Of a DNA stretch of 64,000 nt, positions 12,559-54,479 are shown in pieces. This stretch comes from Acholoe squamosa (lineage: Eukaryota > Annelida > Polychaeta > Phyllodocida > Polynoidae): assembly GCA_949317995.1 (NCBI GenBank), contig OX439041.1, positions 3,288,501-3,352,500 of the forward strand. The letters run 5' to 3'. The first letter of the stretch is position 1. Every line of letters starts with the position of its first letter. The notes under the pieces were generated by a model. It ran no database searches and had not been told where the DNA came from. It saw nothing but the letters and a program-made list of their open reading frames with translations. Both the position numbers and the translations under genes were made by a program.

Positions 12559-12595
12559 CATAAAAGGAGGGAGTGGCTGGTTTTGGGTATCAGTA
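12559..12595 (+). promoter_or_regulatory. Core promoter of the antisense gene in H
   Basis: A TATA-like CATAAAAGG (from 12559) lies about 31 nt before the A of an initiator-like TATCAGT (12588-12594). The antisense ATG follows at 12624. The same arrangement is seen in P (41411-41450, minus strand). The motifs are seen; activity is inferred. Confidence 0.55.
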
Positions 12596-12623
12596 GTTCA
12601 CTGTAGTTTTTACCTAGTACAAC

Positions 12624-13097: not shown

Positions 13098-13186
13098 ATC
13101 GTGCTACCTGACCCTGGGTGTTAAAACCCAATACCAAAAATGGCCCTTTTCAGGGCCAGCCAATTGGAGTCTAGGCTGTGGGCAGT

Positions 13187-14786: not shown

Positions 14787-14788
<2 letters not shown>
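13187..14788 (-). pseudogene. H env, 3' half
   Basis: The C-terminal part of the envelope-like protein, continuing from 24948-25834 across the G2 insertion. Reading down from 14788, the Cys-containing ectodomain is in frames around 14620-14324 and 14363-13743. A membrane helix follows at about 13900-13960, then a second hydrophobic segment near 13700, then a long cytoplasmic tail ending at 13187. Frame changes near 14330-14420, 13740 and 13440 break it. The tail runs on in the env frame past the place where P has lost 4 nt, which shows that the tail belongs to env in this family. Confidence 0.8.

Positions 14789-14835
<47 letters not shown>
14789..14835. repeat. (AT)n run, left of G2
   Basis: Pure AT dinucleotide run inside H env at the place where P has a short ATATATAT. 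G2 inserted into it, so its target duplication cannot be told from the repeat. Confidence 0.95.

Positions 14836-24888: not shown

Positions 24889-24947
<59 letters not shown>
24889..24947. repeat. (AT)n run, right of G2
   Basis: AT dinucleotide run that resumes H env after G2. Together with 14789-14835 it is the expanded target site. Confidence 0.95.
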
Positions 24948-24952
<5 letters not shown>

Positions 24953-25834: not shown

Positions 25835-26008
25835 TAATGAATTTGCTGTTTAAAGTTTTGTCAAATTTGTAGTATTTTGGTGCTGGTAAAGTCTAAGTGT
25901 ATGGTGTAACACTTTAAATGAAGTGGTTCAAACTGTACCTTTGCCAGATTGTGCTGTCTTCGCAATATGTTCAGTGAGTCTATAGAGATTGACTAATAAA
26001 TGGTAAGG

Positions 26009-27148: not shown

Positions 27149-28280
27149 TGGTTCAAAGAATACAATGTGTCTTCTAAATCTTCATCATGTGAGTCAGGTG
27201 TAGGCTCGAAGTCATTATCTGGAAAGAGTTGTGAGTATTCTCTCTCACAATGGCAAAACACATAGTGTGTAGATTGTTTCAAGATACCCTTAATGGGTGT
27301 CTCTGGTCTTTCAATGGTGTTGGGTGGATCATCCCTTTTGAATGGTACTTTCTTTGTTACTTTTGCAAACTTGGTTCTACTGGTTGCTCTAACTCTCCTT
27401 GGTGTGGGTGGACATAGCATCACCCTTCACATGTTGAATGGTGAATGAGAATTGTTGTATGTCTAGAGCCCATCTGTCCCATCTATGTGTGAGTCCTGTA
27501 TTGGTTAATAGTGGAATTAGGGCTGCATGGTCTGTGTATAATTGGAAGTGCCTAGTTTCTAGGTAGTGTCTGAAGTGTAATACTCTATATACTACTCCCA
27601 GTAGTTCTCTCTCTGTGGTATTGTAATTTCTCTTATGTTTGGAGAGGGTTCTACCTGCAAAGGCTACTGGTCTGAGCACTCCTTCATTATCCCTCTGTGA
27701 GAGTACATCTCCTAAGCTCACATTGGAAGCATCAGTTGCCAAACTGAACTCTCTCCCATAGTTTGGATATCTGAGAAGAGCATTGGTATAGAGGGCATGC
27801 TTTAATGCTTTAAAAGCATTATCTGCATCCTCTGATTTTGGTGTTGGGAAAGTTTTGATTGATTCCACCTTTGTGGGAGATGGTTGTAGTCCCATGGGTG
27901 TGACTCTCATTCCCAAGAAGTCTATTCTGTCTATGAAGTATTCACATTTTGATTTCTTCAATTTGAGTTTACCATCTCTTAAGCTGTTGAAAACGTCATC
28001 CAGGTCATGGAAGTGTTGTTCGATGGATGGTGATAGGACCAATATGTCATCTAGGTATGGTAGGGCACATTTGTATTTGAGTTTGTTCAAAATCAATGTT
28101 ACTAGATGGCAGAATCCCGCAGGGGCCGTAGCAAGTCCCATCAGCATCCTTTGGTAGACAAATTTTTTGTCATTTGCTATGAATGCAGTTTTGTGCTGGT
28201 CCTCCTCTTCTATAGGAATTTGAAAAAAATCCCTGTTGGGCATCTAGCTTACTGAATACTCTTGGTCTGAGTGACCCTAT
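27149..28280 (-). pseudogene. H reverse transcriptase and RNase H, 3' part
   Basis: Reading down from 28280, directly after the P insertion. The RT palm is kept, with YLDD at 28046-28057 (minus strand). RNase H has FSLATDASN, RTLSKH and LYTDHAAL. Compared with P, about 41 codons joining RT to RNase H are deleted in frame (near 27825), frames are disturbed at 28243-28200, and the end of RNase H near 27420 is altered by another deletion. The upstream part of this gene is at 49815-51258. Confidence 0.88.
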
Positions 28281-29611
28281 TATGATATACCATTTTATTA
28301 TTCCATAAATTCTAACATATTTTGTATTAATCAAAGAATATCTATGAAATTAATACATAGGTTGCTTCTAAGAACTTTGTATAAGAGTGTCATGCCCCAC
28401 TGCACACCAGCCAGGTCAGTTACAACACACTTTATGACATCAAAGGCTCCGACCTAATGGTTCACTGCACAATATAATAAAAATGAGGGTCTCAGTGTGC
28501 GACCTCATGGTTCAGTGCACAAACTAATAAGTTGTAAGTGAATGCAACTGGCAGTCACGGGTGCCTGAGCACCGCTGACGCCGTCATGAGTGTCTGAGCA
28601 CTCTAATAACTGAACAATGGGTTACATAAGCACGACGCCATAACCGTCCGGTCGCCCTAGCGTCGCTCCTGAGCAAGCTAGGTCAAATATCAAAGCATTT
28701 ATGGAAAGCCCATAATTAGACGGTCAAAATGAGCCCAAGATCAAGGCGGAACTCCTATTATTAGGAAGTTACGCCATGGAGACTGAATCAACCTCTGAGT
28801 GCACTACAGACAAACCGGCGCAAGTTACGCGCCTATCCAGCGGGCATTAAAAACTTGGCATATTCAACTCCGCGCATGCGCAAAATGGCGGTCATAGCTG
28901 CGTAAACGACCGAGATATGAGGGTCTGAAGTTACAGAACCGACCAAGACAATGGGGGACACAGCGGCGCCCATGGGGGTCCTTTGTGCACCCAGTGACAC
29001 ATGAAAGACTCCCCTCTAACAATTGCAGAGTTAGGCAGATGCCACTGGCCCCAGTCAGTCTGGAGGTGCTTTTCCAAGATTTGCTACAAATAGCCTGTCT
29101 GCACCTCCAAGAGGACAGAACACCAAGAACCGCTCTAGAGGTAACATCTCCAGTCATCTCCTGCCACCTGCTATACCACTGCACTATGGTGAAACTATGC
29201 TAGACAGGCATTGGTTTCTATCATTAGTGGCCAGAGGGTATCTTCCTCAAGACTTCCACCAGAGGGTAAAGTTATTCATTATTACATTATTCCTCTAAGC
29301 AGCAGGTCAGGAGCTAGGTGTGGGAACCCACCTAGAACTATGCTGGACATTGTATTATTATTACCTCACAGGTGGAGTGGAACAGAACATTATACTTTAT
29401 AAATTACTGTATATTTACTGTATGTACAAATTACCTACATACTAACTACTGTATGATTGATATTTCTTACATGTTGCCTAAAGCTGAATAAACCAGTGAC
29501 AACTGGAAATAACACTATTTTATGAGAGCTTAATGTATTTACACTATATACCACTAGTCTTATGATATTTCTCATATGACAACTTGATCATGCACAATTA
29601 CTAGTATGACA
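28281..29611 (+). repeat. P 5' LTR (A)
   Basis: 1331 bp, starting TATGATAT and ending TAGTATGACA. AATAAA lies at 29487-29492. It differs from LTR B by scattered substitutions and a few indels (for example near 28735-28765), a few percent at most. The TATG start is not the usual TG, but the 4-bp target duplication places the boundary here. Confidence 0.9.
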
Positions 29612-29756: not shown

Positions 29757-30560
29757 ACCAGTGAGATCTCCCACATACCAGTGAGATCTCCCACATACCA
29801 GTGAGATCTCCCACACATCAATGAGATCTCCCACACATCAATGAGATCTCTCACACAACAGTAAGATCTCCCACACATCAATGAGATCTCCCACACGATC
29901 AGTGAGATCTCCCACATACCAGTGAGACCTCCCACACATCGATGAGATCTCCCACACATCAATGAGATCTCTCAACCAACAGTAAGATCTCCCACACATC
30001 AATGAGATCTCCCACACGATCAGTGAGATCTCCCACATACCAGTGAGATCTCCCACACATCAATGAGATCTCCCACACATCAATGAGATCTCCCACACAT
30101 CAATGAGATCTCTCACACAACAGTAAGATCTCCCACACATCAATGAGATCTCCCACACGATCAGTGAGATCTCCCACATACCAGTGAGACCTCCCACACA
30201 TCGATGAGATCTCCCACACATCAATGAGATCTCTCACACAACAGTAAGATCTCCCACACATCAGTGAGATCTCCCCACACGTCAGTGAGGTCTCCCAAAC
30301 GTCAGTGAGGTCTCCCACACATCAGTGAGGTCTCCCACACGTCAGTGAGGTCTCCCACACGTCAGTGAGGTCTCCCACACGTCAGTGAAGTCTCCCACAC
30401 GTCAGTGAGGTCTCCCAAACGTCAGTGAGGTCTCCTACATGTCAGTGAGATCTCCCCACACGTCAGTGAGGTCTCCCACACGTCAGAGAGGTCTCCCACA
30501 CGTCAGAGAGGTCTCCCCACACGTCAGTGAGGTCTCCCACTAGTCAGTGAGGTCTACCCC
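29757..30560 (+). repeat. 20-bp leader minisatellite of P
   Basis: About 40 tandem units of roughly 20 bp, typically CAGTGAGATCTCCCACACAT or CAATGAGATCTCCCACACAT in the first two thirds and CAGTGAGGTCTCCCACACGT towards gag. Each early unit carries the 8-bp palindrome GAGATCTC. H has a shorter array (52866-53172). Long antisense frames here are by-products of the repeat. Confidence 0.93.
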
Positions 30561-30930
30561 ACACATCAAGGCCTTATCAGTCAAGCTGGCAGAACAACAC
30601 ACAAAGACCTTACGTAGTCAGGGGCCTGTTGAAGAGGTCTCCCTCCCACCTAGATCTAGGAGACCCACAGGGGGCAAAACAGCCTCCAATACAACAGACC
30701 CACACTCAGGAGACCCCACACCACTCACCCTGTCTACTCAGGGAACAACCAGTTCTCAGGGATCCAACATTTCCCAGGGATCTCTACAGAACGCTCAACT
30801 CACGCTATCTACCTCAGGGGAAGAAGGATCTGCCTCAGGGGGTGGATCCACACCCTCATCTAGATCCTCCACCCCAGCTCCAGCTTTTGACAGCCACTCC
30901 TCCAGAGACACTTCTCCCACACCCTCCATC

Positions 30931-32560
30931 ATGGACACCGATGAAGGCCCCCAACCTAATCAGACAGCTGAGAAGATAAGGGCCTATGAGAAGGCCATCC
31001 AAGATGCAGTTACTGCCCTAGAGACCAACAAGTCCCAGCAGGAGGAAAGGGAGAAGATCCTCAACCAACAACTGGCAGAGAGGAATGCAGCAATAGATGC
31101 CCATCAGAAGGCCATGGAAGATCAACGGAAGTCCCTAGAGAGACAACAACAACAGATAGCAGATCTCATGAAGATGGTATCATCCCAGACCCCACAACCT
31201 CCCACACCAGCCTGTTGTCACACCATCTGCCTCTGGATCCAAGGATGACATCATAATCTCTATGGTGTCCAACATGACCAAACTCATAGACAGAAAACAA
31301 CAGGACGACAGAAAGATCAGGCTACATGAGGTAACAAAACCCAAAACCTTTTCACACCCATCACCACTCATGTCAACAGCATTATTTATTGATCACAAAT
31401 TCCCAGAATATCTGAAGGATAAGTACAAAGTAACAGACAGTGACACCATGGTAACATATTTACCCAAGTACCTTGAAGGTCAAGCACTAGCTTGGTTTGA
31501 ATCCTTCAGGGAAAGTGCCACACCTGATATGTTGACATGGACCAATGTAGTGAATAAATTAAAAGAGTATTTTGCTACTCGAGACAATATCATCTCAAGG
31601 ACAGCACTCCGTGCACAAAAGGTAGATGAACCTGTCCTAGACTATGCATGCCATCTCAGGAAAGTGTGTAATGCCCAACGCCAAAGCGATGAAATCCTAA
31701 GCAAGGCATTTACCCGAGGCATGAGGCCCTGGATCTCTGTGGCTCTTGAAAACAAGAAAATAGACTCTTTTGACCAAGCCCTAGACCTAGCCTTAGAGGT
31801 TGAGACCCAAGAAAGATCTAGGAAGATAAGGGAGGCAGAGTCTAACCCACAGCCTACTAAGAAAAAGGTCCAGGAAATCAGCACTAGTGCAGATGAAGAT
31901 GTTAACCTAATGTCTAGTGCCCATGTAAGGCAACAGGAGGCTAAGGTTACATCAAAAGACCCTACCGGTAGATATAGAGGAAATAACTATGACCCCAACT
32001 ACCAATCCAATAGAGGTAGAGGTAGGGGGGGCAACAACAACAACCGGGGGGGTCACAACAGTAGGAAAGACAACAGCTCTTCCAACTCCAACAATGGTAA
32101 CTCTTCATACAGTGATAGGAGAGACAGAACCCCAAGTAATGGCAGATCCTATAATAATCAAGGATCCAACAGTAGGAGCCATAGTCCACATAGGAACTAC
32201 AACTCTGGATCCTACAACAACTCTGGATCCGACAACAAAAGCCAGGGTTCAAACAACTCTGGATCCTATAACCAAGGATCCAACAGTAGAAGCCATAGTC
32301 CACATAGGAACTACAACAGTGGATCCTACAACAACAATGGTGCCTACAACAACCAGAGATCCAACAACTCTGGTCAATACAGCAACTCTGGTCAATATAA
32401 CCAGGGTTCCAACTCACGCCAGGAGGATTACAAACCTGACACAAGAGGTTACCAGGGGAACCAACACAGTAACCCCCAAATACCACCTCATGTGATGGAT
32501 CAAATCTCCAAGCTCCTGGTGGCGACCATCTCAACCACCCCACAGAACCAGGAAAACTAG
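30931..32560 (+). pseudogene. P gag (one frameshift)
   Basis: The start at ATG 30931 is chosen because H's gag begins at the equivalent MDT...PQPNQ segment; the frame is open upstream to 30547 with a Ser/Thr/Pro-rich stretch that H lacks. A coiled-coil segment (about 30970-31180) is followed by a frame change near 31200-31262, where P is shorter than H. A capsid-like retrotransposon Gag domain (about 31375-31800) and an Asn/Gly/Ser/Arg-rich tail with repeated SRSHSPHRNYNSGSY blocks follow. There is no CCHC knuckle; the basic tail may take over RNA binding. The stop TAG at 32558-32560 follows the slippery heptamer. Confidence 0.85.
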
Positions 32561-32596
32561 GATGTCACAGTGCCGATGGGCCAGTGCACTGTGACA
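32551..32596 (+). promoter_or_regulatory. P predicted -1 frameshift signal
   Basis: The heptamer GGAAAAC (32551-32557) in the gag frame (G GAA AAC) abuts the gag TAG. Five nt later TGTCACAGTGC (32563-32573) pairs perfectly with GCACTGTGACA (32586-32596), 11 bp with a 12-nt loop. The pol frame is -1 and open across the junction. The same site is unchanged in H (51201-51246). Confidence 0.7.
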
Positions 32597-35364
32597 CCCC
32601 AAAAACAAACAATCAATCAGGATCAACAAGGATCCAACCAGAGACAATTGCTAGTGCCAATCTACCATCTAACAGACAGAGACGTCCATCAGTGATACAC
32701 ATCACCCCACCAGATTCATCATCAAAGGATACAGGTGAGAGTACCAAGCTTTCTATTGTACTTCTTCAAAATGGCTGTATCAATGCAAATCTATATGATG
32801 TTTCAGATGTACAATGTTTGGTTGATACAGGTGCTACTATCACCTGTGTCAGACAATCATTCCTCATGGATCTCCAAAAGAGATTCCATATCCAACTGAG
32901 GAAATCTAAAATCAACATCCATTTGGCAGATGGATCGGTGTGTCATGTTAGACATTCAGCTATGCTGAACTTTAGAATCCAAGGTGTCAGATTCCAATAC
33001 CAATTTGCTGTAATACCCAACCTCACACAGCCCGTTGTACTCGGCACAGATTTCTTAAGCACTACAAAGTCTCAGATTGAATTTAATGTTGATCCTGAAC
33101 AAATTCTCAAACCCATTAGGGCAGTGAGGGATTTTACCATCCCTCCATTCTCTGAACTTGCAGTATTGGGTAAGGTCACATCTACTCAATCACTGCAAGG
33201 CAAAACTGGAGTAGTAGATAACCTCCAAAGAAATAACAATGCCCCATATCTAGTTCAAAGGGCAGCAGTAACCCCCAGGGAAAATAACAAACATCCCCTA
33301 GTGTTACTCAACACCAGCAGGCGCCCACATAAAATCAAAAAGGGTGCCATCATAGCTCTATTTCAGGAAGTCAAGGAATCTGATTTAGAAAAACCTCAAC
33401 AGGTGTCAGACACTACCACACACACTGATCAACCCATCTCAGCCATACGGCCTGAGGATGTAACTCAATTCAGTGACACAGACTCAGACTGTGAGTCCAC
33501 ATATGCTGACCCTGAACCCAACTCAATCAGACTCTCTGAAATAGCTGCTGTACATAGTGAGGCACATGACCTCGAGCCAGAATTGGAAGAGAATGTTTCA
33601 CCAAAATCTGTGCTCACATCCAAAGATCAGCATGATAGATTAGAATCACTGCTGACCAAGTATGATGATATATTTGTAGGAAAAGATGGAGACATTGGTG
33701 CCACACACCTGTATACACACTCAATACATGTAAAACCTGAGGCAGTACCATGTCATTTCCTACCATATAGACAAACACCAGAAAAACAGGCCGCAATAGG
33801 GGAATAGTGTGAAAGGCTAGTACAACAGGGCATTCTGAGAGAATGTGCTGAGGGCCCCTGGGCTTCCAGATCCTTTTTAGTACAAAAATCATCGGGAGGC
33901 CATAGGCTCGTCACAGATTTTCGTTATCTGAACCAGAACACGATAAATCAAGCCTTATCTACACCCCGGGCCGATGACACTCTAGACATGATAGGGTCAC
34001 TCAGACCAAGAGTATTCAGTAAGCTAGATGCCCAACAGGGATTTTTTCAAATCCCTATAAGACAGGAAGACCAGCATAAAACCGCATTCATAGCAAATGA
34101 CAAAAAATATGTCTACGAAAGGATGCCGATGGGTTTAGCGACCGCACCTGCGGGATTCTGCTATCTAGTCACATTAATTCTGAACAAACTCAAATACAAA
34201 TGTGCCCTACCATACCTAGATGACATATTGGTATTATCACCATCAATCGAACAACACTTCCATGACCTAGAAGATGTGTTCAACAGCCTAAGAGTTGGTA
34301 AACTCAAACTGAAGAAATCAAAATGTGAATACTTCATAGACAGAATAGACTTCTTGGGAATGAGAGTCACACCCAAGGGACTGCAACCATCTCCCACAAA
34401 GGTGGAATCAATCAAAACCTTCCCAACACCAAAATCAGTCAAAAATGTCAGATCCTTCACAGGCCTATGCCAATACTTCAAAAAGTTTATCAAAGGTTAT
34501 GCCCAAATTGCTAGACCATTGTATGATCTACAGACACATCTCAAAGCATTTGTCTGGACAGAGGATGCAGATAATGCTTTCAAAACACTAAAGCATGCCC
34601 TCTGTACCAATGCTCTTCTCAGATATCCAAACTATGAGAAAGAGTTCAGTTTGGCAACTGATGCTTCCAATGTGAGTTTAGGAGCTGTACTCTCACAGAG
34701 AGATAATGAAGGAGTGCTCAGACCAGTAGCCTTTGCAGGTAGAACCCTCTCCAAACATGAGAGAAATTACAATACCACAGAGAGAGAACTACTGGGAGTA
34801 GTTTACGGAGTATTACACTTCAGACACTATCTAGAGACTAGACACTTACAATTATACACAGACCATGCAGCCCTAATCCCACTATTAACCAATACAGGAC
34901 TCACACATAGATGGGCCAGATGGGCTCTAGACATACAGCAATTTTCATTCACCATCCAACATGTGAAAGGTGATGATAACATACCTCCAGATGCTATGTC
35001 TAGAAGAGAATACCCAGACTCTGGACCCATGACTAACCCTCCACCCCCACCAAGGAGAGTTAGAGCAGCCAGTAGAACCAAGTTTGCAAAAGTAACAAAG
35101 AAAGTACCATTCAAAAGGGATGATCCACCCAACACCATTGAAAGGCCAGCGACACCCATTAGGGGTATCTTAAAGCAATCTACACATTATGTGTTTTGCC
35201 ACTGTGAGAGAGAATACTCACAACTCTTTCCAGATAATGACTTCGAGCCTATTGAATTCTCATCACTCAATCAGATGCTGAAGGCAACTCCTAAGGAGCC
35301 ACCCTTCACCCCACCTGACTCAGATGATGAAGATTCAGAAGACACAATATATGCTATTACGTAA
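32584..35364 (+). pseudogene. P protease, RT and RNase H (one stop codon)
   Basis: One frame, -1 to gag, interrupted by a single TAG at 33805-33807 where H has a sense codon. The retropepsin motif LVDTGAT has its Asp at 32824-32826, and the matching VLGTDFL is near 33040. The RT spans about 33640-34520 with YLDD at 34213-34224. RNase H follows (FSLATDASN, RTLSKHERNYNTTERELL, LYTDHAAL) and ends near 35000, then a Lys-rich linker to 35364. It would copy genomic RNA into DNA in the particle. Only the stop prevents a full-length product, unless it is read through. Confidence 0.9.
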
Positions 35365-37303
35365 GCAACTTCTAAATCAGTCAGATTCTTTGAACCAATG
35401 CAGGAAAAGGAAACATCAAACCATTTGTGTCCTATGACCACACGCTCAAAGACTAGAGAAATGATTCAGGAGGGCACACCAAAACCCCCCACACAATAAC
35501 AAACTATTCTAAATGAGAAAAAGGTCACAGGAAACAAACCTACCAAAACCCCACCTGCCAGGAAAAATGTCACAAAAGACACTGCATCTACTAAATCAAA
35601 GAACTCTGAGACAAAGAAGAATGACAAAAAGCAAATTGTGCCTTTAAAGAAAAAGGTTGCCACTCCCATCAAGGCGTGAATAGGCCCTCCAGAGGAGCCT
35701 ACACACCAAAACAAGAGTGACACACCCCAACAAAAGGCCAATAGTCGATGAAAAAGAAAAAGAAAGAGACAGAATAAAACAATATGTGCTAGATATAAAT
35801 CAACTACTGGATCAGATTCCCGACACATCCATCTCAGGTACAAACCTTGGCTTGGAACAAAGGAAGGACAAGGACCTGTTGCCCCTCATACAATATCTTG
35901 AGGATGGGACCTTGCCTGCACCAAAAGCACAAGGAAATAGAATCATCAACCAAGGCCAGACATACACCTTGGTAAATGGTACATTAGTCCATATATGCCC
36001 CATAATTTGGAGAAAAAACAATACTGTACCACTTCAAATTGTTATACCACAGCAATGGGTAACAAGTACACTACAGTATTTCCATGACTCACCTACCGGC
36101 GGCCATCTTGGTTCAAGTAGGATGCTGTCAGCACTCCGACCTAGGGTATATTGGAAGTCTATGCTAGCAGACACAACAAAATATGTTTCCACCTGCCACA
36201 CATGCCTCACAGCAAAAAGGCAAGTACACTCACACAAAACACCAATGACAGTGAGAGAGTACATGGCTTCACCAATGAAGTTCCTAAACCTCGACGCGGT
36301 GGGACCACTTCCCACAACTGCCAGGGGAAACAAACATATACAAGTCTGCATAGATTATGCTACCAGATATGCAACAGCTTGGGCTACTACTGACTTAAAA
36401 GCTGAAACAACAGCAGCAGAGTTCTACAAGAATATAATTTGTCATCATGGAACACCAGCCACTCTTCAAACAGACAATGGAACATGTTATACAGGTGCAA
36501 AGTTCACAAAGTTGACCAAACACTTCAAGATCAAACATAAATTCTCCTCACCATACAGGCCACAATCAAATGGGCTTGTAGAGAGATTCAATGCTAGCAT
36601 CGGCACAGCGCTCAGAGCATTCTGCTCAAAGCACCAAAACAATTGGGATTCATTTATTGAACCCATAACCTTTGCATTAAAGAACACTGAATCCCAAACT
36701 ACAGGATTCACCCCTTTCTTCCTACTCCATGAAAGAAACCCAGCCACCCCAATGGACTTAGGGCTGGGAATACAGGAAGACATATCCACCGTAGCAGACC
36801 ATGTAGCTAACATGATAACAAATCAAGATACCTCTAGGAGGAAAGCTATAGAAAGGGTCGCCAAGCTACAAAAGGAAAGAAAGGATAGATATAATAAGAA
36901 ACTTACACCACAGGAAATCAAGGTCACCGACATGGTGTACCTAAACATACCAAGAATCCTGACCAACACAGAGTGTAAGAAACTCCAACCCCTTTTTATG
37001 GGACCATATGTTGTAGTAGATAGACCTAGTTTGACAAGTGCCAAACTCAAAAACTTGGACACCAATCTATTGGTGGCCAGACCAGTGCACATAGACAGGC
37101 TGAAAAAGGTTGTGGCTGTCAGAAACAATGAATTTGCACACAGGCTTATTCCACATGATGCCAAATACTACAACAAAATTGTAAGGAACAAAAATGACAT
37201 CACCCTTACAAGAGAAACCACAGGCATAGGCCCTATCAAGCCTAGGCCTGCACACCACATACTAAGAAAAACATCTAGGTGTGGTGCAGTTTCAAGAAAT
37301 TAG
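35365..37303 (+). pseudogene. P linker and integrase (frame-shifted from RT)
   Basis: The linker 35365-35716 has stop codons and a short insertion (about 35670-35715) not in H, which puts integrase in a different frame from RNase H. The 35717-37303 frame is intact: HHCC zinc region (about 36090-36220), catalytic D193, D253 and E289 counted from 35717 (59- and 35-residue spacing), then a C-terminal DNA-binding part ending KTSRCGAVSRN. It would cut and join the element's ends; the 4-bp CTAT duplication fits this family. Confidence 0.9.
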
Positions 37304-38132
37304 AAACAGATTGAGATACCAAAAGAACATAAGATTTTCAAAATATATTACAAATTCTCTTCATCCACACATAAGACATGTGTGACTGATAATGAATTAC
37401 TTATATGTATATAAAGCCAAACAAATTTGTAAATATATCAGTAGGTTATTGCCTCTGAATGGTCAAAGACTGGGACCCTCCAAGTAAAGCAGACATGAAG
37501 TCTAAGAAGAGTAAGGGTAACACAATGGAGTGTCTAAAGCCTAATCCCCACATGAAAGAGTGCGCTATGCCAACACAGCAGTCTATAGAGATCAATTGAC
37601 CTTATAAGCTACACTCAGACAACTGTCTAGACGGTCATGAATGGCTGTCCTGGATGACAGGAGGAGCTAATTACCAGTACACAGATTACACAATAGAACC
37701 CCACAGGTGCAGACACTGGAGATCAAAGGCCTTGACTCCAGAGACACAATACCAGGCCCACAATGGATGTGGGTAAGGTAGGCTACATAAGAAGCACTGT
37801 GGACCATAGCCCACCATCAGTCTTCATCCAGCTGCAGTCTGGAACACCAGTCTACAGGACCCCACTTGGGAATTAGCCAGCCCACTTCTCCATTAGGAGC
37901 GACTGCACTAGGATAAAGAATACACCTACTTCACCTTCAACCTGATCTTACCAACTACTGGTCAATCTCTATAGACTCACCGGACATATTGCCAAGACAG
38001 CTCAATCTTGCAAAGGTACAGTTTGAACCACTTCATTTAAAGTGTTACACCATACACTTAGACTTTACCAGCACCAAATTACTACAAATTTGACAAGACT
38101 TTAAAACAGCAAACTTGCTTTACACAAGCACC
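37304..38132 (+). other. P region between integrase and env
   Basis: About 830 nt without a supported gene. By position it may hold the splice acceptor of a subgenomic env mRNA; several pyrimidine-AG sites are present but none stands out. The segment 37935-38115 is the one kept next to env in H. Confidence 0.5.
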
Positions 38133-40752
38133 ATGGGGAGACTGAGAGTTGCACCCATACTGCTAACTATGCTGTTATTATATACTATAGAACCACTTAC
38201 TGCAGGTTATACATCTGTGGTGAGACAAAACATAGGAGTAGTATTCAAACCTAGCCCTCAACCATTGGTCAATGGACATACAACCACAACACTGTTGTTA
38301 GCTATCCCCTACAAGATACCTCGGGCACCCGTTACCCAAGGATCCATAAGGGATAGAATACTCCATTTGACCACTCCTACTCTACAAGATCATACCTCTG
38401 GTCAAATTATCCAACAAGCCAAAGAGCTTGACACCTTGCTGGAAATTGCAGACAAGGAGATAAATGAAACATTAGCCTCCATCAAATTGTTCCTATCCAA
38501 CCCCATAAACACATTGGACAAGGCCAAAAGGGAGGCCATACTGGGTTTTCTAGCACCCCTGTTTCGCGGTGTGCTAGGTCTAGCCACAGTGGAAGATGTG
38601 AACCAAGTAATGGGACAGCTCAAGAACATAGATGAAATACTAAGAAAATTTGCTAAACAAGATCAGGAAGCAGCTAGTCTCATTGAAAAGATCACAGACA
38701 GACAAGATAAGTTTGTTAAAGCATACATCCAAGATAAGAAGGTACTGGACAGCACAATCAACACCATAGGTGACACCGTCAACCTGTGGGCCTCTAACAT
38801 GTCCAGGTCACTTGACTCATATTCAAGGCACGAGAAAACTCAAAGGGAAAAAATGCAAGTATTAAATGATGCATTAATTATCATAGCAGCAAGAATGAAT
38901 ACAGTTCAATCACTGCAAAGGACAAATGCAGCCCTGAGGATGCTATCATCAGGAATCCTAACCCCTGATATAGTACCACCCTCAGACCTTGCTAGATACT
39001 TAATTGACATTAATAACAAACTTACGATTACACACCCTGGAGCACAAGTCGCAATTAATGACTTAGATTTCTATTATTCACAGAAGCTGACCTCATACAC
39101 TTACTCAGCTCACCATATATATATTCATCTGGTCATTATAATTCAATCTACCACCTCTACCTTCAAACTGTACCAAATGATTACATCACCCATGCCTATA
39201 GACACACAGGAGACCCCCACCAGAGGAGTCACCAAATTGCAAACCACAACTGAGTTTCTAGCAGTATCTTACGACGAATCATTATTCATCGAATTGGACT
39301 CAGCAGATATGCAGGCATGTGAAGGTACTACAGTAAAGGTATGCAGAGATGTAAATGGTAGAATTTATAAACACAGGCCTACATGCCCTGTAGCCATTTT
39401 TACTAACCAGGCTCACCAGATTAAGGAACATTGCAAGTTTACAGTTTCACCACTGCAAGCACCTACCACCCATGCTATTTCCATTTCTGAAGATGAGTAT
39501 CTGGTCACTACTAATGAACCCCATTACTTTATCAACTGCCATGGTAAAACGTCTGAAACTCGAAAAGCCCAGTCCTACTCAATCATAGGTGTACCCTGTG
39601 GGTGCACAATCAGTGTAGGAGAATTTTCTCTTCCAAACACGAGGTTGCCCTGTAACTCAACCTTATCATTTCACTACATTCTCAAGACAATTAATTTACC
39701 ATTCATGGCAGCACTTAACCAAATTTCTGAAACCAAACCAGATGAAAGAGAGAATCTTCCAAATTTCCCAGTAGTAAACCTCTCTAAAACCTTAGAAAAA
39801 CTACAGGAAAATCCAATCATGGATGATATTACTCAACTAAATTTAGAGCCCTTTGCCAAAACATTATTAAAAGATGCCTCCAACCTTGATAAGGCAATGG
39901 AAACGCGCTACGTAGAATCATACCTACGTCGAGTTACAGAGCATCCAATCTTCCGAAGCTTAGGACTCATCCTAGGGATATCAGCTCATATTTTTATAGT
40001 ATACATACTACTCAAACTATACAGACTAGGAGGGACGGTAGCCTACCTGCCTACAGCCAAAGCATTCAAACTAGTCACCGAGCTGCCCCTACACAAATTG
40101 CTCCCAGATAAGAATCCTACCAAATTTACCCCTACAGAGGAAACCCACACCCCTTTCCTCACAATTCAGGAAACCTACACCCTGATAATTGCTATATTAT
40201 TCACCCTGACCATCTACTCAGCCTACAGAATAATGAAGTACCTTAAGAAATTTGCACAGACACACTGTGGCAAGAAAAAGGTGGCCAAGCGCACAAATCC
40301 CACAATATATTTTAAAATATATTGTGGAGACTCAAACTTCGCGCTACCCCTGAGGCCAATACCACATGAATTTGATGAGATCAGCAGCTGCCCCGACCTA
40401 TAAGGATATAGTGGTTAAAACCTTCCCACTACCTAAGGCTATATTTACCTGGAATGGACCAGCAGTTATAACAACACAGAGAGGAGAATTTGCTCATCAC
40501 CTCCCTCAGGTGATACACCTACCTTGGCGCACTAGGTTCAGTACCATACCAGCCCTTAAAAACAAAGGACTGTACTACTCCATGCTTCTCCAGAATGATT
40601 GTGGCACCAGCCCGGTGACCATGACAGCACTGGAAAATACAACAGATATAATTATTGACGAACAACAGGAGGAGACCGCAAGGTCAAACATGCAGACTAT
40701 TGCTAATTTTCTAAACCACCAGCCCTCCCCGGTGACTGTGGAAACAGCCTAG
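38133..40752 (+). pseudogene. env: P Env, baculovirus-F/errantivirus-like (tail frameshift)
   Basis: Envelope-like glycoprotein. The ATG at 38133 has a strong context and is followed by a hydrophobic signal peptide (residues about 1-25). A basic KAKR at residues 130-133 resembles a furin site. It is followed by a hydrophobic Gly-containing stretch and a D-V motif, the layout of the fusion-peptide region of baculovirus F and insect errantivirus Env. Long helical heptads come next, then a Cys-containing ectodomain, a membrane helix (about residues 608-632) and a second hydrophobic segment (about 680-700). The frame ends at 40403. Compared with H, 4 nt are missing near 40377, and the cytoplasmic tail continues in another frame to 40752. 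Family assignment rests on layout and short motifs. Confidence 0.72.
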
Positions 40753-40901
40753 ACTGCCCACAGCGTAGACTGCCCCCAGTCCACCACCAGGAGACAACAT
40801 ATCAGAGACAGTATTCAGAACTTTTCGGACAATTTGCCGGCCCTGAAAAGGGCCTTTGGGATGACGGGTTTTTACACCCTAGGTTTCAGTCAGTCGGGAT
40901 T

Positions 40902-41381
40902 CTACCACAGAGCCTCGGGTTCAACATCAACGGGAGAGTGGGAGTCGGAGTCCGATCCATACATGTGGCCGTGGTCATGTTCCCACTCAACAAGTCGGGC
41001 CTCCATCGATCCCAGTCCATACTCGGCTGCCATAGATGGGTCCCCGGATGGCGCAAGATCGATGAAGGACACTGCCAACAAATAATCCCACAACACTCGC
41101 TCCCGCGGTCCGAAGTTAGAGTCCATGGGCCAGAACCCTAGATTACTCAAGGCCCTAGCCAAAAGGGCCACAGTGGCCCCCCGACGCAAGGCTGAGCCCA
41201 AGAAATAGTGGCAGGAATACATGTCGACCAACACATCACCATGCTCACTGATCTCTCTGAAATTCCCCACTATGTAGCCATAGTGTATGGTCTGGTTGGC
41301 CTCCACCAGGGCCCTAGCCGGACTCCCCACCGCCATCACCTGGGAGACAGGCAAAGCAAAGATAGCTTGAAGGTGAGCCAT
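40902..41381 (-). CDS. Antisense accessory ORF of P, unknown function
   Basis: Intact 159-codon frame on the strand opposite to P's genes, between env and the 3' repeats. It ends 150 nt from the end of env, in convergent orientation. The ATG at 41381 is chosen because H begins at the same MAH; the frame is open 30 codons upstream, but that part covers the putative promoter and is not conserved as protein. It is about 60% identical by eye to the H copy (12624-13097), mostly with conservative changes. Length and ends are conserved (VEPEALW then stop). No known domain, signal peptide or membrane helix was recognised. It has a central hydrophobic/Arg segment (FLGSALRRGATVALLARAL) and an acidic, His-rich end. 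An antisense regulator is conceivable by analogy with antisense genes of some retroviruses. Confidence 0.72.
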   Translation of the reverse strand: MAHLQAIFALPVSQVMAVGSPARALVEANQTIHYGYIVGNFREISEHGDVLVDMYSCHYFLGSALRRGATVALLARALSNLGFWPMDSNFGPRERVLWDYLLAVSFIDLAPSGDPSMAAEYGLGSMEARLVEWEHDHGHMYGSDSDSHSPVDVEPEALW

Positions 41382-41410
41382 GGTGTTGCAGCAGAGGTTT
41401 CCAGAGAGGA

Positions 41411-41450
41411 ACTGATACTCCAATACCAGCCACCCACTCCTTAAATGGAC
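41411..41450 (-). promoter_or_regulatory. Core promoter of the antisense gene in P
   Basis: On the minus strand a TATA-like ATTTAAGG (about 41447-41440) lies roughly 30 nt before an initiator-like TATCAGT (41417-41411). The ATG is about 30 nt further on. H has the same layout with a stronger CATAAAAGG. The spacing suits a TATA-Inr promoter; activity is inferred. Confidence 0.5.
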
Positions 41451-43057
41451 ACACACACACCCCCCCCCCACCCTGAACTGTCCACTGAAACCAAGCTAGG
41501 CACTGCCACAGACACATGCCAGAATCTGGCACCTAACACCTCAAGTGCCACCACTGCATGAGCACATCAGGGAGGAGACTTACATCTCACTCCTGACACA
41601 CCTCCACTGTCAATGAAATTATCAAAGTATTAGAAAAAAAAAATTTAGAAAATATACGCAGCCACTTGTTGATGTATAATATGAAAATCTATGGTATTCT
41701 CACAAAATCGATGATTAATGCGCGCATATACGCGCAAAATTGCGAAATTGCAAATTACACATTGTAAATTGTACAAATCTAACATTAATATACATGAATG
41801 CAGGTAGATAACTAAGACAGCTAGCACTTGTATACTATAACAAGGTTTACTTAAAGTAACACACTTTAGGTATCCAAGAAAATTGTTGGAAAAATGAATG
41901 AAAAAAAAAAAAAAAAATTGTTGAGGAAAATTGTTGACATGAAAAATGTTTACTTAAGATACTCACCAAATAATCTCTTTCAGGGACACTTACTCAAGAA
42001 AGCTAGGGGAAAGTCATTTAAAAGCAGCGGCCCACTGCCGAAATTGCCAATCAGTACACCCATATAGCAAAATCAAAGAGTAACTCAGAGACAAACAAGC
42101 CTATTGTACATGAAGTACTTTGTTTTTCCGGTCCTCGGAAAAAATTGTCTCAAATCCCAAAAATTGTATAGTGTAAACTAGATTGTACGTTTGTACCCAA
42201 TTTGCACACTAAAATTGTATGTTTGCACATCAGATTGTACGTTTGTACCCAATTTGCACACTAAAATTGTATGTTTGCACATCAGATTGTACGCTTGTAC
42301 CCAATTTGCACACTAAAATTGTTTGTTGCACACTAGATTGTAAGTTTGTACCCAATTTGCACACTTAAATTGTATGTTGCACATTATACTGTATGTCTGT
42401 ACCCAATTCATACACTAAAATCAGGGTTTTCACAAAAATCAACATTTTTATGTGTAACCAAGCTGTACGCAAAATTATACATGTGCATACAGAAATTATC
42501 AATTGAACGCAAAATTATATATTGGCATACTAAAATTGTGAATTGAACGTGAAATTGTATATTTGCATACTAAAATTGCCAAATGTACGCGAAATTATAT
42601 ATTTGCATACTAAAATTGCCAAATGTACGCGAAATTATATATTTGCATACTAAAATTGCCAAATGTACGCGAAATTATATATTTGCATACTAAAATTGCC
42701 AAATGTACGCGAAATTATATATTTACATACTAAAATTGCCAAATGTATGCGAAAATTATATATTTGCATACTGAAATTGCCAAATGCACGCGAAAATTAT
42801 ATATTTGCATACTAAAATTGTCAATTGAACGCAATTACACGCGAAATTGTAAATTTGCACATTAAATTGTCATTTATGTTCAATTTGCATGCTAAATTGA
42901 ACATTGAATGCCAAAATTGCACACTATTTGCCAAATTGTATGTTGCACATAAAAATGGAAAATTGTACCCAAAATTGATGTTACATAAGCAAATACGCTC
43001 AGGTATGGTAAGATATAGAAACTCGGAAATGTACTTATACCCAGGAGAAAATTATTT
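41451..43057 (+). other. P 3' noncoding region with two AT-rich minisatellites
   Basis: It contains a 52-bp repeat (units from 42181, 42233, 42285) built on TTGTACCCAATTTGCACACT, and a 40-bp repeat (units from 42591, 42631, 42671, 42711; array about 42471-42830) built on TTTGCATACTAAAATTGCC. H has a related array at 11490-11775. No ORF is supported. Confidence 0.85.
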
Positions 43058-48484: not shown

Positions 48485-49814
48485 TATGATATATCATTTT
48501 ATTATTCCATAAATTCTAACATATTTTGTATTAATCAAAGAATATCTATGAAATTAATACATAGGGTGGTTCTAAGAGCTATAAGAGCGCTCAAACTTTG
48601 TATAAGAGCGTTCATGCCCCACTGCACACCAGCCAGGTCAGTTACAACACACTTTATGACATCAAAGGCTCCGACCTAATGGTTCACTGCACAATATGAT
48701 AAAAAAGAGGGTCTCAGTGTGCGACCTCATGGTTCAGTGCACAAACTAATAAGTTGTAAGTGAATGCAAACGGCCGTCACGGGTGCCTGAGCACCGCTGA
48801 CGCCGTCATGAGTGTCTGAGCACTCTAATAACTGAACAATGGGTTACATAAGCACGACGCCATAACCGTCCGGTCGCTCTAGCGTCGCTCCTGAGCAAGC
48901 TAGGTCAAATATCAAAGCATTTATGGAAAGCCCATAATTAGACGGTCAAAATGGTCCCATTATTAAGGAAGTTACGCTATGGAGACTGAATCAACCTCCG
49001 AGTGCACTACAGACAAACCGGCGCGAGTTACGCGCCTATCCAGCGGGCAGTAAAAAATTGGCATATTCAACTCCGCGCATGCGCAAAATGGCGGTCATAG
49101 CGGCGTAAACGACCGAGATATGAGGGTCTGAAGTTACAGAACCGACCAAGACAATGGGGGACACAGCGTCGCCCATGGGGGTCCTTTGTGCACCCAGTGA
49201 CACATGAAAGACTCCCCTCTAACAATTGCAGAGTTAGGCAGATGCCACTGTCCCCAGTCAGTCTGGAGGTGCTTTTCCAAGATTTGCTACAAATAGCCTG
49301 TCTGCACCTCCAAGAGGACAGAACACCAAGAACCGCTCTAGAGGTAACATCTCCAGTCATCTCCTGCCACCTGCTATACCACTGCACTATGGTGAAACTA
49401 TGCTAGACAGGCATTGGTTTCTATCATTAGTGACCAGAGGGTATCTTCCTCAAGACTTCCACCAGAGGGTAAAGTTATTCATTATTACATTATTCCTCTA
49501 AGCAGCAGGTCAGGAGCTAGGTGTGGGAACCCACCTAGAACTATGCTGGACATTGTATTATTATTACCTCACAGGTGGAGTGGAACAGAACATTATACTT
49601 TATAAATTACTGTATATTTACTGTATGTACAAATTACCTACATACTAACTACTGTATGATTGATATTTGTTACATGTTGCCTAAAGCTGAATAAACCAGT
49701 GACAACTGGAAATAACACTATTTTATGAGAGCTTAATGTATTTACACTATATACCACTAGTCTTATGATATTTCTCATATGACAACTTGATCATGCACAA
49801 TTACTAGTATGACA
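48485..49814 (+). repeat. P 3' LTR (B)
   Basis: 1330-bp direct repeat of 28281-29611, with AATAAA at 49690-49695. It is followed by CTAT and then H RT sequence. Confidence 0.9.
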
Positions 49815-51258
49815 CTATCATGTCTAGAGTGTCATCAGCCCAGGGTGTAGATAAGGCTTGATTGATTGTATTCTGGTTCAGATGACGAAAATCTGTTACG
49901 AGCCTATGGCCTTCCTATGTTTTTTGTACTAAAAAGGATCTGGATGCCCAGGGGCCCTCAGCACATTCTCTGAGAATGCCCTGCTGTACTAGCCTTTCAC
50001 ATTCTTCCCCTATTGCGGCCTGTTTTTCTGGTGTTTGTCTATACGGTAGGAAATGACGTGGTACTGCTTCAGGTTTTACATGTATAGAGTGGGTATACAA
50101 GTATGTAGCACCAATGTCTCCATCTTTTCCTACAAATATATCATCATATTTGGTCAGCATTGATTCTAACCTATCATGCTAATCTTTTGATGTGAGCACA
50201 GATTTTGGTGGAACATTCTGTTCCAATTCTGGCTCGAGGTCATGTGCCTCACTATGTATAGCTGCTATTTCAGAGAGTCTGACTGAGTTAGGTTCAGGGT
50301 CAGCATATGTAGACTCACAGTCTGAGTCTGTGTCACTGAATGGAGGTTCATTCTCAGGCTGTATGGCTGAGCTGGATTGATCAGTGTGTGGGGTAGTGTC
50401 TGACACCTGTTTGGGTTTTTCTAAATCAGATTCTTTGACTTCCTGAAATAGAGCTATGATGGCACCCTTTTTGATTTTATGTGGGCGCCTGCTGGTGTTG
50501 AGTAACACTAGGGGGTGTTTGTTATTTTCCCTGGGGGTTACTGCTGCCCTTTGAACTAGATATGGGGCATTGTTTTTTTCTCTGGAGGTTATCTACTACT
50601 CCAGTTTTGCCTTGCAGTGATTGAGTAGATGTGACTTTACCCAATACTGCAAGTTCAGAGAATGGAGGGATGGTAAAATCCCTCACTGCCCTAATGGGTT
50701 TGAGAATTTTTGTTCAGGATCAATATTGAATTCAATTTGGGATTTTGTAGTGCTTAAGAAATCTGTGCTGAGAACAATGGGCTGTGTGAGGTTGGGAATT
50801 ACAGCAAATTGGTATTGGAATCTGACACCTTGCATAGCTGAATGTCTAACATGACACACTGATCCATCTGCCAAATGGATGTTGATTTTTGACTTCCTTA
50901 GTTGGATATGGAATCTTTTTTGGAGATCCATCAGGAATGCTTGTCTGACACAGGTGATGGTAGCACCTGTATCAACCAAACATTGTACATCTGAAATATC
51001 ATAAAGATTTGCATTGATACAGCCATTTTGAAGAAGTACAACAGAAAGCTTGGTACTCTCGCCTGTATCCTTTGATGATGAATCTGGTGGGATGATGTGT
51101 ATCACTGATGGATGTCTCTGTCTGTTTGATGGTAGATTGGCACTAGCAATTGTCTCTGGTTGAATGTTTGTTAATCCTGAGTGATTGTTTGTATTTGGGG
51201 TGTCACAGTGCACTGGCCCATCGGCACTGTGACATCCTAGTTTTCCTGGTTCTGGCAA
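49815..51258 (-). pseudogene. H protease and N-terminal RT
   Basis: Reading down from 51258, in the -1 frame to H gag. The protease motif LVDTGAT (about 50970) and its second half are intact up to 50683, where the frame breaks. Pieces 50508-50179 and 50160-49915 continue the protease-RT spacer and the start of RT (EKQAAIGEECERLV). A stop follows FLVQKT, then the frame is cut by P at 49815 and resumes at 28280. Between 50750 and 50880 H lacks about four codons that P has. Confidence 0.85.
51201..51246 (-). promoter_or_regulatory. H predicted -1 frameshift signal
   Basis: On the minus strand the heptamer GGAAAAC (51246-51240), gag stop TAG, a 5-nt spacer and an 11-bp perfect stem (51234-51224 with 51211-51201) are the same as in P, although nearby gag and pol have diverged. 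Confidence 0.68.
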
Positions 51259-52823
51259 GTGGCTGTGATGTTTGCCACTAGAAGTTTGGAGATTTGATCC
51301 ATCACGTGAGGTGGTATGTGGGGGTTACTCTGCTGGTTCCCACCTCTTGTGTTGGGCTTGTAATCCTCCTGATGTAATCTGGAACCCTGGTTGTATTGAC
51401 CAGAGTTGTTGTACCGACCACAGTTGTTGGAACCCTGGTTGTTGTAGGAACCATTGTTGTTGTAGGATCCACTGTTGTAGTTCCTATGTGGACTATGGCT
51501 CCTGCTGTTGGATCCTTGGTTATATGATCTACTGTTACTTCTATCTCTCCTATCACTGTGTGAAGAATTACCACTGTTGTGTCCCCCCAGTTGTTGTTGT
51601 TGCCCCCCCACCCTACCTCTATCTCTATTGGAGCGGTAGTTGTGGTCATAGTTATTTCCTCTATATCTGCCGGTGGGGTCTTTGGAGACAACCTTAGCTT
51701 CCTGTTGCCTTACATGGGCACTAGACATTAGGTTGACATCTTCTTCCTCTGAACTAGTGGTGACTTTCTGGACCTTTCTCTGTGGGTTAGATTCCTCATC
51801 TCTTACTTTCCTAGATTTATCTTGGGTTTCAGCTTCTAAGGCTAGTTCTAAGGCTTGGTCAAAAGAGTTTTACTTCTTACTCTGAAGAGCTACAGAGATC
51901 CAGGGCCTCATGCCTTGGGTAAATGTTCTGAGAAGGGTTTCATCTTTTAGGCATTGGGCATTACACACTTTTCTGAGATAGATTGCATAATCAGATACAG
52001 GTTCATCTATCTCTTGTGCACAGAGTGCAGTCCTGGAGATAATATGTGACACGATCTGCGAAAATGGGGCTTAGTGCAGGGGTTCCTAAGACCCCTTTTC
52101 CCAGTACATGTCACATATTGTCTTGAGTAGCAAAATACTCTTTTACTTCATGTACTACATTGGACCATGTCAACTTATCAGGTGTGGCACTTTCCTTGAA
52201 GGTTTCAAACCAATCCAATGCTTGCCTTTCAAGGTACTTGGGTAGATATGTCACCATAGTGTCACTGTCTATTACTTTGTATTTGTCCTTCAGGAACTCT
52301 GGCAATTTGTGGTCAATAAATAGTGCTGTTGACATGAGTGGTAGTGTGTGAGAAAAAGTTTTGGGTTTGGTTACCTCATGTTGCCTGATCTTCCTGTCTA
52401 ATTTTGTTGACTGTCTAGGAGCCTGGTCATGTTGGACATCATGGAGATCATGACTTCATCTTTGGATCCAGAGGCAGATGGTGTGACAATAGGTGTGGTT
52501 GAGGGTGTGGGAGGCTGGGAGGCTTGAGTTGATATCAGTTTCATGAGGTCTGCTATCTGTTGTTGCTGCTTATCGAGGGCCTTTCGCTGGTCCTCCATGG
52601 CCTTCCGCTGGTCCTCCATGGCCTTCTGTTGGGTGTCTATTGCTGCGTTTCTCTCTGTCAACTGTTGACTGAGGATCCTCTCCCTTTCCTTTGAGGCAAG
52701 GGCGTGAGCATCATGTTCGGCCTTGTTTGCTTCTAGGGCAGTAACTGCATCTTGGGTGGTCTTCTCATAAGCCCTTATCTTCTCAGCTGCCTGATTGGGT
52801 TGGGGGCTTTCATTGGTGTCCAT
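51237..52823 (-). pseudogene. H gag
   Basis: Starts at ATG 52823 (MDTNESPQPNQ). Pieces are 52823-52398 (coiled coil with a duplicated AMEDQRK unit), 52335-52111 and 52052-51870 (capsid-like domain, split by the 69-bp palindrome at 52046-52114), and 51728-51237 (basic Asn/Gly/Ser-rich tail with an SRSHSPHRNYNSGSY block). Frames are lost near 52400 and 51870-51730. It ends at TAG 51239-51237 inside the frameshift signal. H lacks the Ser/Thr-rich upstream extension present in P. Confidence 0.85.
52046..52114. repeat. 69-bp palindromic insertion in H gag
   Basis: Ends GTGACA...TGTCAC, with an imperfect inverted repeat inward (AAAATGGGGCTTAG versus CTAAGACCCCTTTT). It is flanked by the target duplication ATAT (52042-52045 and 52115-52118). 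P lacks it at the homologous site (31585 area), so it is a clean insertion of a very small MITE-like element. Confidence 0.8.
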
Positions 52824-52865
52824 GGTGGAGGGTGTGGGGTCACTGGTGTGTTGTAGGTATCACTG

Positions 52866-53172
52866 ACATGTTGGAGATCACACTTAGAATGACATTGGGG
52901 AGACCTCACTGATGTTTGGGAGTCCTCACGGATGTGTGGGAGACCTCACTGGCATGTGGGAGACCTCACTGGCGTATGGAGGACCTCACTGATGTGTAGG
53001 AGACCTTACTGACATGTGGGAGACCTCACTGACATGTGGGAGACCTCACTGACGTGTGGGAGACCTCAATGATGTGTGGGAGACTTCACTGACGTGTGGG
53101 AGACCTCACTGACATGTGGGAGACCTCACTGACGTGTTGGAGACCTTACTGACGTGTGGGAGATCTCACTGG
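52866..53172 (-). repeat. 20-bp leader minisatellite of H
   Basis: About 15 units of the same 20-bp repeat as P (minus strand AGTGAGGTCTCCCACACGTC and variants). Homology to P's leader continues to about 53235 and then stops. Confidence 0.88.
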
Positions 53173-53235
53173 TGACCTTTTGAACATAGTTGCAAGGTCA
53201 CTGGGTGGGTGGAGTGGATTTTACTGTTTGTGTGT

Positions 53236-54479
53236 TTTTTTGGGTAAAAAGTGTAAGCACCAACTGCACCAGGGGATCTTCGTGTCTGTTAGAACATTGC
53301 ACAAAATACACTGGCCTTGTGTAACAAGGGAAATCTAAGCAAAACTGGCTGAAAGGGGAACATGGTCTTTTTCGATGACGGTGTTGTTGGCTTCCTGTAA
53401 TTGAACATGGTGCTTCACAAAAAAAAACTTTCCAAGTCAAAGACTATTTCATATGGGTATATTTTTAACTCTGAGGTTTTTTTTATACCCAACTCCTCCA
53501 AGAATTGAAAAAAAAAGATCTGGCGGGTTTGTAGATGCCCCTTTGTACCTGAAAGTCACACTGGTGAAATTTTTTTTCACACCCCTGTGCCTCTTGAGAG
53601 AGTAAACGCTAGGGAACGGCTTATGACATAGCTCGCAGGGGTAAATTTGATTGTGTTGACACATGTTCATTATGAGGCTGATGTGAGAATTGCAGAGATT
53701 GAGGTTCATGACGTTTCTCCTGTAACAAAGTTTGCTTCTCTCCACTCGGACGGTTCTCTTTTTTCTCTTTCCCGACCATCTGAGAAAAAAAAATTCTTAG
53801 GTTGAAAAGATCCTTTACTTTGTCCAAGTCCTGTAAGCTTACGCCTTTGAAGGTTTTCACATTTGCCTCTGGATAGGCTTGGTGGGAAAGTGTCTCAGAG
53901 AATGGTACTTGTGATAGGAGAGGTATCCAAAAAAACACAAATGAACGTCACAAGGTCTTTTACTCTTTGGCTCTCTGTGAAAGTGTATCATGCCTCTCTG
54001 TCTTAAAACTTTATGCTATAACTTTTTTGTTTGGGCTGCACATGCCTTCCTAAAGCACAAAAAAAAGTTGTTCACTGCCAACTTGCATACTAAGTAGTTC
54101 ACCACTCCAGGTGATAGAGAAAAAGTAGCAACTTCAGTAGATTCAATTTTATTAGAAATATTTAAATTAAGGCTGTAATGATTTGATTTGACTTAGGATT
54201 ATCGTTATTCAGAAGGGATCACAAATACACCGATATCAGGTTCTGAAGGCAAAAAGTTTTATTACAGTATTGTTCCAAATATTGACATGTTGTAAGGGCG
54301 GAAGAGTTGAAATTCAAACTGAATGCTAGAGCTGCTGAAATCCATGCCTTTGCCTGGGCACCAACTACTTGGCAATTCAAGTCCTCACAATGGAAAAAAC
54401 ACGGAGCAAAAAGCTTGTCAAGTTTTTGACTCAGTGAGAAAAAACCTCCCAGCGGAGAAACGGTGAAAAAGAAACTCAC
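53236..54479. other. Unassigned AT-rich DNA with a zinc-finger-like ORF
   Basis: It lies beyond the truncated end of H. On the minus strand, frame 53745-53449 contains one C2H2-like motif (YPCELCHKPFPSVYSLKRHRG), and frame 53938-53621 reads into it with a frameshift, so this is probably the scrap of a gene or transposon. The rest has no recognisable gene; 54150-54479 may be more of the polymerase remnant that follows, but is too decayed to say. Confidence 0.35.

What the first reader, a model, noticed from the sequence alone, without database searches (positions are those of the whole stretch)
40902..41381. Conserved antisense gene in an env-bearing Ty3/gypsy element
P has an intact 159-codon frame on the strand opposite to gag-pol-env. 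Its diverged relative H has the same frame (12624-13097) with no frameshift and one nonsense codon, although H's gag, pol and env are riddled with frameshifts and deletions. Identity is about 60% by eye and most changes are conservative, with the same start, end and length within two codons. This pattern suggests past selection on the protein. Antisense genes are known from a few retroviruses (HTLV-1 HBZ, HIV-1 ASP); I know of none for this kind of element.
Basis: partly seen in the sequence, partly recalled or inferred. Interest (0 to 1): 0.92.

Follow-up and report, generated by a model that had tools for sequence, protein, structure and literature searches.

The report
Antisense gene in an envelope-bearing retroelement
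A retrovirus-like mobile element carries a small protein gene written on the opposite strand to its other genes, and comparison of two copies shows that natural selection preserved that protein; such genes are known from plant and fungal elements, but I found none described for this envelope-bearing kind.

Summary
The minus-strand frame 40902-41381 (159 codons) is intact; its relative at 12624-13097 has one nonsense codon and no frameshift. Of 153 comparable residues 97 match, dN/dS is 0.19-0.29 by four methods, and differences fall 49/26/67 over codon positions 1/2/3. None of 5000 column shuffles reached either value. The other five frames carry stops in both copies. So this was a selected protein gene, as constrained as gag, pol and env.

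The divergent block runs from the env end to just upstream of the antisense start, as if the gene were an exchangeable cassette.

Antisense genes before the 3' LTR are known in plant and fungal Ty3/gypsy elements; ten paper searches showed none for an env-bearing animal-type element. Function is unknown; a trans-acting regulator is my best guess. Only two copies could be examined, because the host-genome search did not complete (16 calls).

The parts
40902..41381 (-). antisense gene of element P, 159 codons, ATG to TAG
   Evidence: codon-level selection
12624..13097 (+). same gene in the older copy H (H lies on the minus strand), 157 codons with one internal TGA
40772..41451 (.). divergent block of P: gap after env, antisense frame and its leader, 57-68% identical to H while env before it is 93-100% and 41452-41620 after it is 88%
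41410..41447 (-). candidate TATA-like site (41447-41440) and TCAGTT initiator-like site (41415-41410); matched in H at 12559-12566 and 12590-12595; chance pairs are common
38115..40752 (+). env of P, in two frames (38115-40403 and 40366-40752); Baculo_F-type by its relatives
30547..37303 (+). gag and pol frames of P, with RT, RNase H and integrase domains in that order
28281..29611 (+). 5' LTR of P; CTAT target duplication at 28277-28280
48485..49814 (+). 3' LTR of P; CTAT at 49815-49818
42160..42976 (.). tandem-repeat array (about 40-base units in part) between the antisense gene and the 3' LTR
11016..14799 (-). 3' part of H: env end, antisense gene region and LTR piece
24939..28284 (-). middle part of H (pol, env), ending where P is inserted
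49810..53241 (-). 5' part of H (leader repeats, gag, pol), on the other side of P; that the parts are one element is inferred from joined coordinates

Best explanation
A protein-coding accessory gene of an env-bearing Ty3/gypsy-type element, placed convergently to env in the space before the 3' LTR and read on the antisense strand. SHOWN: the frame was kept by purifying selection on the protein between two element lineages, about as strongly as gag, pol and env; and the block that holds it is far more diverged than the neighbouring env, so it has a different history. INFERRED: a short transcript starts just upstream of the ATG (candidate TATA/initiator pair, leader of about 32 bases), so the gene can be expressed without the 5' LTR. 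INFERRED, weaker (about 0.35): the small acidic protein acts in trans on the element's own expression or on a host factor, as suggested for HBZ and Grande gene 23, and the gene passes between element lineages by recombination.
For: dN/dS 0.19-0.29 by four methods; 0 of 5000 shuffles as low; the other five frames give 0.50-2.56 with 2-10 stops in each copy; ratio 0.11-0.30 in five overlapping windows; gag pieces 0.22-0.31 and eight of nine pol-env pieces 0.11-0.32. One in-frame indel in 474 aligned bases of the frame against 14 in 758 in the 3' flank, 13 not multiples of three, P(0) = 0.0003 at that rate. dS 1.21 against 0.12-0.33 in eight pol-env pieces. Same start and stop, strong start context, and in H a TAG three codons upstream.
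Against: Only two copies, one broken. No expression data. No homologue (0 of 465 and 0 of 5438 candidates at E<=1), domain, solved relative or usable fold (pLDDT 41.6). Absence of a frameshift in H is not significant alone. Promoter motif pairs are frequent by chance, and no AATAAA or ATTAAA was found downstream in P. The ninth pol-env piece (35390-35660, stops in both copies) has a ratio of 3.0 on few changes.
Confidence: 0.75

Rival explanations
1. Host gene origin: the cassette was taken from, or exchanged with, a host gene family, and the selection seen acted on the host paralogues before capture, not on the element.
For: The block is much more diverged than its flanks, with GC3 0.60-0.65 against 0.35-0.51 and CpG ratio 0.49-0.54 against 0.11-0.28 in gag, pol and env.
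Against: Same place, orientation, start and end in both copies, which two separate captures would hardly give; no homologue in the protein database, though that database may hold few animal genomes.
Confidence: 0.14
2. The antisense RNA, not the protein, is what matters (double-strand formation, silencing or interference); the frame is a passenger.
For: Antisense non-coding RNAs are known in retroelements (PMC7264820, passages). The stretch upstream of the gene (41452-41620) is more conserved (88%) than the frame (68%).
Against: The conservation is codon-shaped, which an RNA role would not give.
Confidence: 0.05
3. A chance open frame, or an effect of base composition or of a sense-strand function.
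For: Stop count and lack of frameshift in H fit neutrality (826 of 5000 runs; P(0) 0.17). The strand is A-poor, which favours open frames.
Against: Shuffles that keep composition never reach the observed ratio or codon pattern (0 of 5000); the three opposite frames have 2-9 stops in each copy; 97 identical residues against at most 88 in 5000 neutral runs.
Confidence: 0.04

Closest known systems
Antisense additional ORFs of plant Ty3/gypsy elements (Grande gene 23, RIRE2, Retand, PvRetro13) and fungal Boty brtn
   Same: Single conserved gene on the antisense strand before the 3' LTR; in Retand also tandem arrays in the same region; Grande gene 23 is read from its own promoter (PMC7264820, PMC11963269, passages; original papers not read).
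   Different: Here an env gene precedes it; no TRP28 or other Pfam domain; the protein is far shorter than the 600-base cut-off used for Retand ORFs.
HTLV-1 HBZ and HIV-1 ASP
   Same: Antisense protein gene in the 3' half of an env-bearing retroelement (PMC10186651, passages).
   Different: ASP maps within env, while this gene overlaps no sense gene; no bZIP or other domain; no promoter in the 3' LTR was tested.
Errantivirus-like env-bearing Metaviridae
   Same: LTRs, RT-RNase H-integrase order, Baculo_F-type env through relative P0002.
   Different: The antisense gene, 1.3 kb LTRs, and tandem arrays in both leader and 3' region. The passages read of an insect ERV study mention no antisense gene (PMC12992720).

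Membership tests
Ty3/gypsy (Metaviridae) | RT, RNase H, integrase order between LTRs with target duplication | tested here: met
   RVT_1 and RNase H at 33988-35364, integrase at 35717-37303; LTRs and CTAT duplication. No tree was built, so the lineage within the family is open.
Env-bearing (errantivirus-like) element | Baculo_F-type env | tested here: inconclusive
   P's own env has no Baculo_F hit at E<=1; relative P0002 (61% identical) scores 25.6 against a cut-off of 24.1, and three other relatives scanned do not match.
Antisense aORF of the plant and fungal type | Conserved antisense frame between the last sense gene and the 3' LTR | tested here: met
   Position; conservation in two of two copies.
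Antisense aORF of the Retand type | TRP28 (PF04195) domain | tested here: not met
   No Pfam family at E<=10 for P0001 or the two H pieces.
Antisense aORF of the Grande type | Own promoter; nuclear protein | not testable with these tools
   Only a weak candidate motif pair; no expression or localisation data.
HBZ-type antisense protein | bZIP domain | tested here: not met
   No Pfam match; that HBZ is a bZIP protein is from PMC10186651.

The most novel reading that the evidence does not exclude
The antisense gene is an exchangeable, multi-allelic module: element lineages share nearly the same pol and env but carry anciently diverged versions of this one protein, swapped by recombination together with its own leader. 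Type-specific functions, such as exclusion of rival elements or evasion of a host factor, would produce that pattern, and I know of no such case in an env-bearing retroelement.
Probability: 0.25. Interest if true: 0.85.

Novelty: new variant of a known kind. Interest (0 to 1): 0.66.

Why it matters
Well-supported antisense protein genes in retroelements are few, and overlap with a sense gene often makes selection hard to read. Here the frame overlaps no sense gene, so codon-level selection can be read directly. If confirmed, it would extend a plant and fungal pattern (antisense gene, with tandem repeats, before the 3' LTR) to an env-bearing element of animal type, suggesting that the arrangement arose more than once. 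The excess divergence of this gene over its neighbours makes a cassette hypothesis directly testable with any genome that holds more copies.

Tried and rejected
CpG decay as the cause of the high divergence: rejected (72 transitions and 70 transversions; outside CpG contexts 122 of 408 columns still differ). Sense-strand coding: rejected. Lysine-free protein as a selected trait: 0 of 159 and 0 of 156 residues are lysine, but base composition alone predicts about 2-3, P(0) 0.05-0.15, and 4 of 37 ATG-started frames of 120 or more codons in the window are lysine-free, so this stays a curiosity. Antisense core promoter: a motif pair is matched in both copies, but such pairs occur 6.4 and 6.6 per kb on the two strands of the window. 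Poly(A) signal: no AATAAA or ATTAAA on the minus strand of P 38115-40902; one ATTAAA at 13552 in H (13097-14830 scanned). Troyka lineage: set aside; Troyka has 3-base target duplications, LTRs of 100-400 bp and no env (PMC12440569, abstract and passages). Structure: one AlphaFold job, mean pLDDT 41.6, so no fold search was made. Relatives by DNA: P0001 in viral contigs (no pattern match) and genome contigs (25 stretches matched, none a relative); integrase piece in viral contigs (8 stretches, none); env alignment in viral contigs (130 stretches, none); P0003 in viral contigs (no match) and genome contigs (10 stretches, none). tblastn of P0001 on the window: beyond P and H nothing below E 0.78. 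Rfam: no match in the window at gathering scores. Papers: ten searches answered; none listed an antisense gene in an env-bearing animal Ty3/gypsy element, judged from titles and abstract starts of the rows shown (several lists were cut) and from passages of seven papers (PMC8220671, PMC7264820, PMC5408684, PMC12440569, PMC10186651, PMC12992720, PMC11963269); an eighth (PMC10169902, passages) was read on lysine-free proteins. Library papers only; most subscription journals are not held.

Full report
WHAT IS THERE. Element P (plus strand) has LTRs at 28281-29611 and 48485-49814 (1287 of 1312 aligned bases equal, gaps left out) and a CTAT target duplication. Between them lie gag and pol frames, with RT, RNase H and integrase domains in that order, env in two frames (38115-40403 and 40366-40752), the antisense frame 40902-41381, a tandem-repeat array (42160-42976) and a nested element (43174-48324) with an RT domain and a weak tyrosine-recombinase match below its cut-off, which I call DIRS-type from recall. 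P sits in the pol of an older copy, H, on the minus strand, which is also split by other elements: 53241-49810, 28284-24939, 14799-11016, and an LTR piece at 675-5. That these are parts of one element is my reading of the coordinates. H's antisense frame is 12624-13097.

IS THE FRAME A GENE. The codon alignment has 153 comparable codons, of which 97 encode the same residue. NG86 gives dN 0.257, dS 1.21, ratio 0.21; LWL85 0.29, YN00 0.19, ML 0.21. The other five frames give 0.56, 1.97, 0.88, 0.50 and 2.56, each with 2 to 10 stops in each copy. Differences by codon position are 49, 26, 67. Of 5000 shuffles of alignment columns none reached the chi2 (17.8) or the ratio; the lowest shuffled ratio was 0.38. 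The ratio is 0.11 to 0.30 in five overlapping windows. In the nucleotide alignment the frame has one indel, six bases, in 474 aligned bases (the protein alignment draws it as two in-frame gaps), while the 3' flank has 14 in 758, 13 of them not multiples of three; at that rate 8.1 out-of-frame indels would be expected, P(0) = 0.0003. Against: the lack of a frameshift and the single stop in H are unremarkable in themselves. Twenty out-of-frame indels in 5376 aligned bases of nine pol-env pieces predict 1.8, P(0) = 0.17, and 826 of 5000 neutral runs had one stop or none.

WHEN DID SELECTION ACT. dN in the nine pol-env pieces is 0.026-0.057, which roughly caps the decay of both copies since insertion (inference). 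The antisense gene differs at 142 of 462 bases, so most of its divergence, with its codon pattern, dates from when the lineages were active.

THE MOSAIC. dS between H and P is 0.37-0.44 in four gag pieces, 0.12-0.33 in eight pol-env pieces, 0.02 in a ninth (35390-35660, with stops in both copies), and 1.21 in the antisense gene. dN/dS is 0.22-0.31 in gag and 0.11-0.32 in the eight pol-env pieces (3.0 in the ninth, on few changes). Identity by stretch: 40753-40901 57%, frame 68%, 41382-41451 68%, 41452-41620 88%, 41621-41760 78%, 41761-41940 72%, 41941-42160 85%; an LTR piece 490/660 = 74%. The end of env is 93-100% identical per 60-column block up to 40771. Selection on the protein does not raise dS in this way, and CpG decay does not explain it. 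The simplest account is recombination: the two copies carry long-separated versions of this block beside recently shared pol and env. The most diverged block spans the env end to the leader of the antisense gene, which is why I call it a cassette; with two copies this is a hypothesis, and patches of 72-78% further downstream show that its 3' edge is not clean.

COMPOSITION. GC3 is 0.65 (P) and 0.60 (H) in the gene against 0.35-0.51 in gag, pol and env of P, and CpG observed/expected is 0.54 and 0.49 against 0.11-0.28. This fits a separate origin but does not prove it; the LTR (0.52) and 3' flank (0.70) are not CpG-poor either.

EXPRESSION. H has an in-frame TAG three codons before the ATG; P's frame could begin further up at a GTG. 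The start context has A at -3 and G at +4 in both copies (the Kozak rule is recalled). A TATA-like site and a TCAGT initiator-like site lie 66 and 34 bases upstream in P and at matching places in H, but chance gives such pairs about 6 per kb. No poly(A) signal was found in P. Expression is therefore inferred only.

FUNCTION. The protein is small (17.5 kDa), acidic (pI 4.8), without an obvious transmembrane stretch (highest 19-residue hydropathy mean 1.34), and lysine-free in both copies; base composition nearly explains the last. No domain, homologue, solved relative or usable fold was found. By analogy with Grande gene 23 (nuclear, own promoter; PMC7264820) and HBZ (PMC10186651) I put a trans-acting regulator first, at about 0.35, with counter-defence or exclusion of related elements next; these are guesses.

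KNOWN OR NEW. Antisense genes before the 3' LTR are established in plant Ty3/gypsy elements and reported in a fungal one (passages only, original papers not read). In Retand they come with tandem arrays in about half of the elements, in the same region, as here. An annelid survey repeats the general statement (PMC8220671, passages). Ten paper searches showed none for an env-bearing animal-type element, within the limits given under Tried and rejected. Env here has seven database matches (P0002-P0008; two carry PF12259 in the listing); of four relatives scanned, Baculo_F passed its cut-off in one, P0002. Hence: new variant of a known kind.

LIMITS. Two copies, one locus, no expression data, and no host-genome search (16 unanswered calls).

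Noticed in passing
60115-63171: Tandem 919-base units; the 300-base reference stretch is 98-100% identical in four copies.
   Followed up: no
14836-24888: Nested element with 377-base terminal repeats 99.7% identical and a 1965-codon frame, so probably a recent insertion in H.
   Followed up: no
30547-40752: gag, pol and env of P are strongly CpG-poor (observed/expected 0.11-0.28) while the antisense gene (0.54), LTR (0.52) and 3' flank (0.70) are not. Unexplained.
   Followed up: partly
40902-41381 and 12624-13097: The antisense protein has no lysine in either copy; composition predicts 2-3, so this is suggestive only.
   Followed up: yes
29638-30584 and 52870-53209: Arrays of 20-base repeats in the 5' leaders of P and H.
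   Followed up: no
9028-9534: Another nested element (repeats 801-1188 and 10612-10994) has overlapping long frames on both strands near its 3' end; not tested for coding.
   Followed up: no
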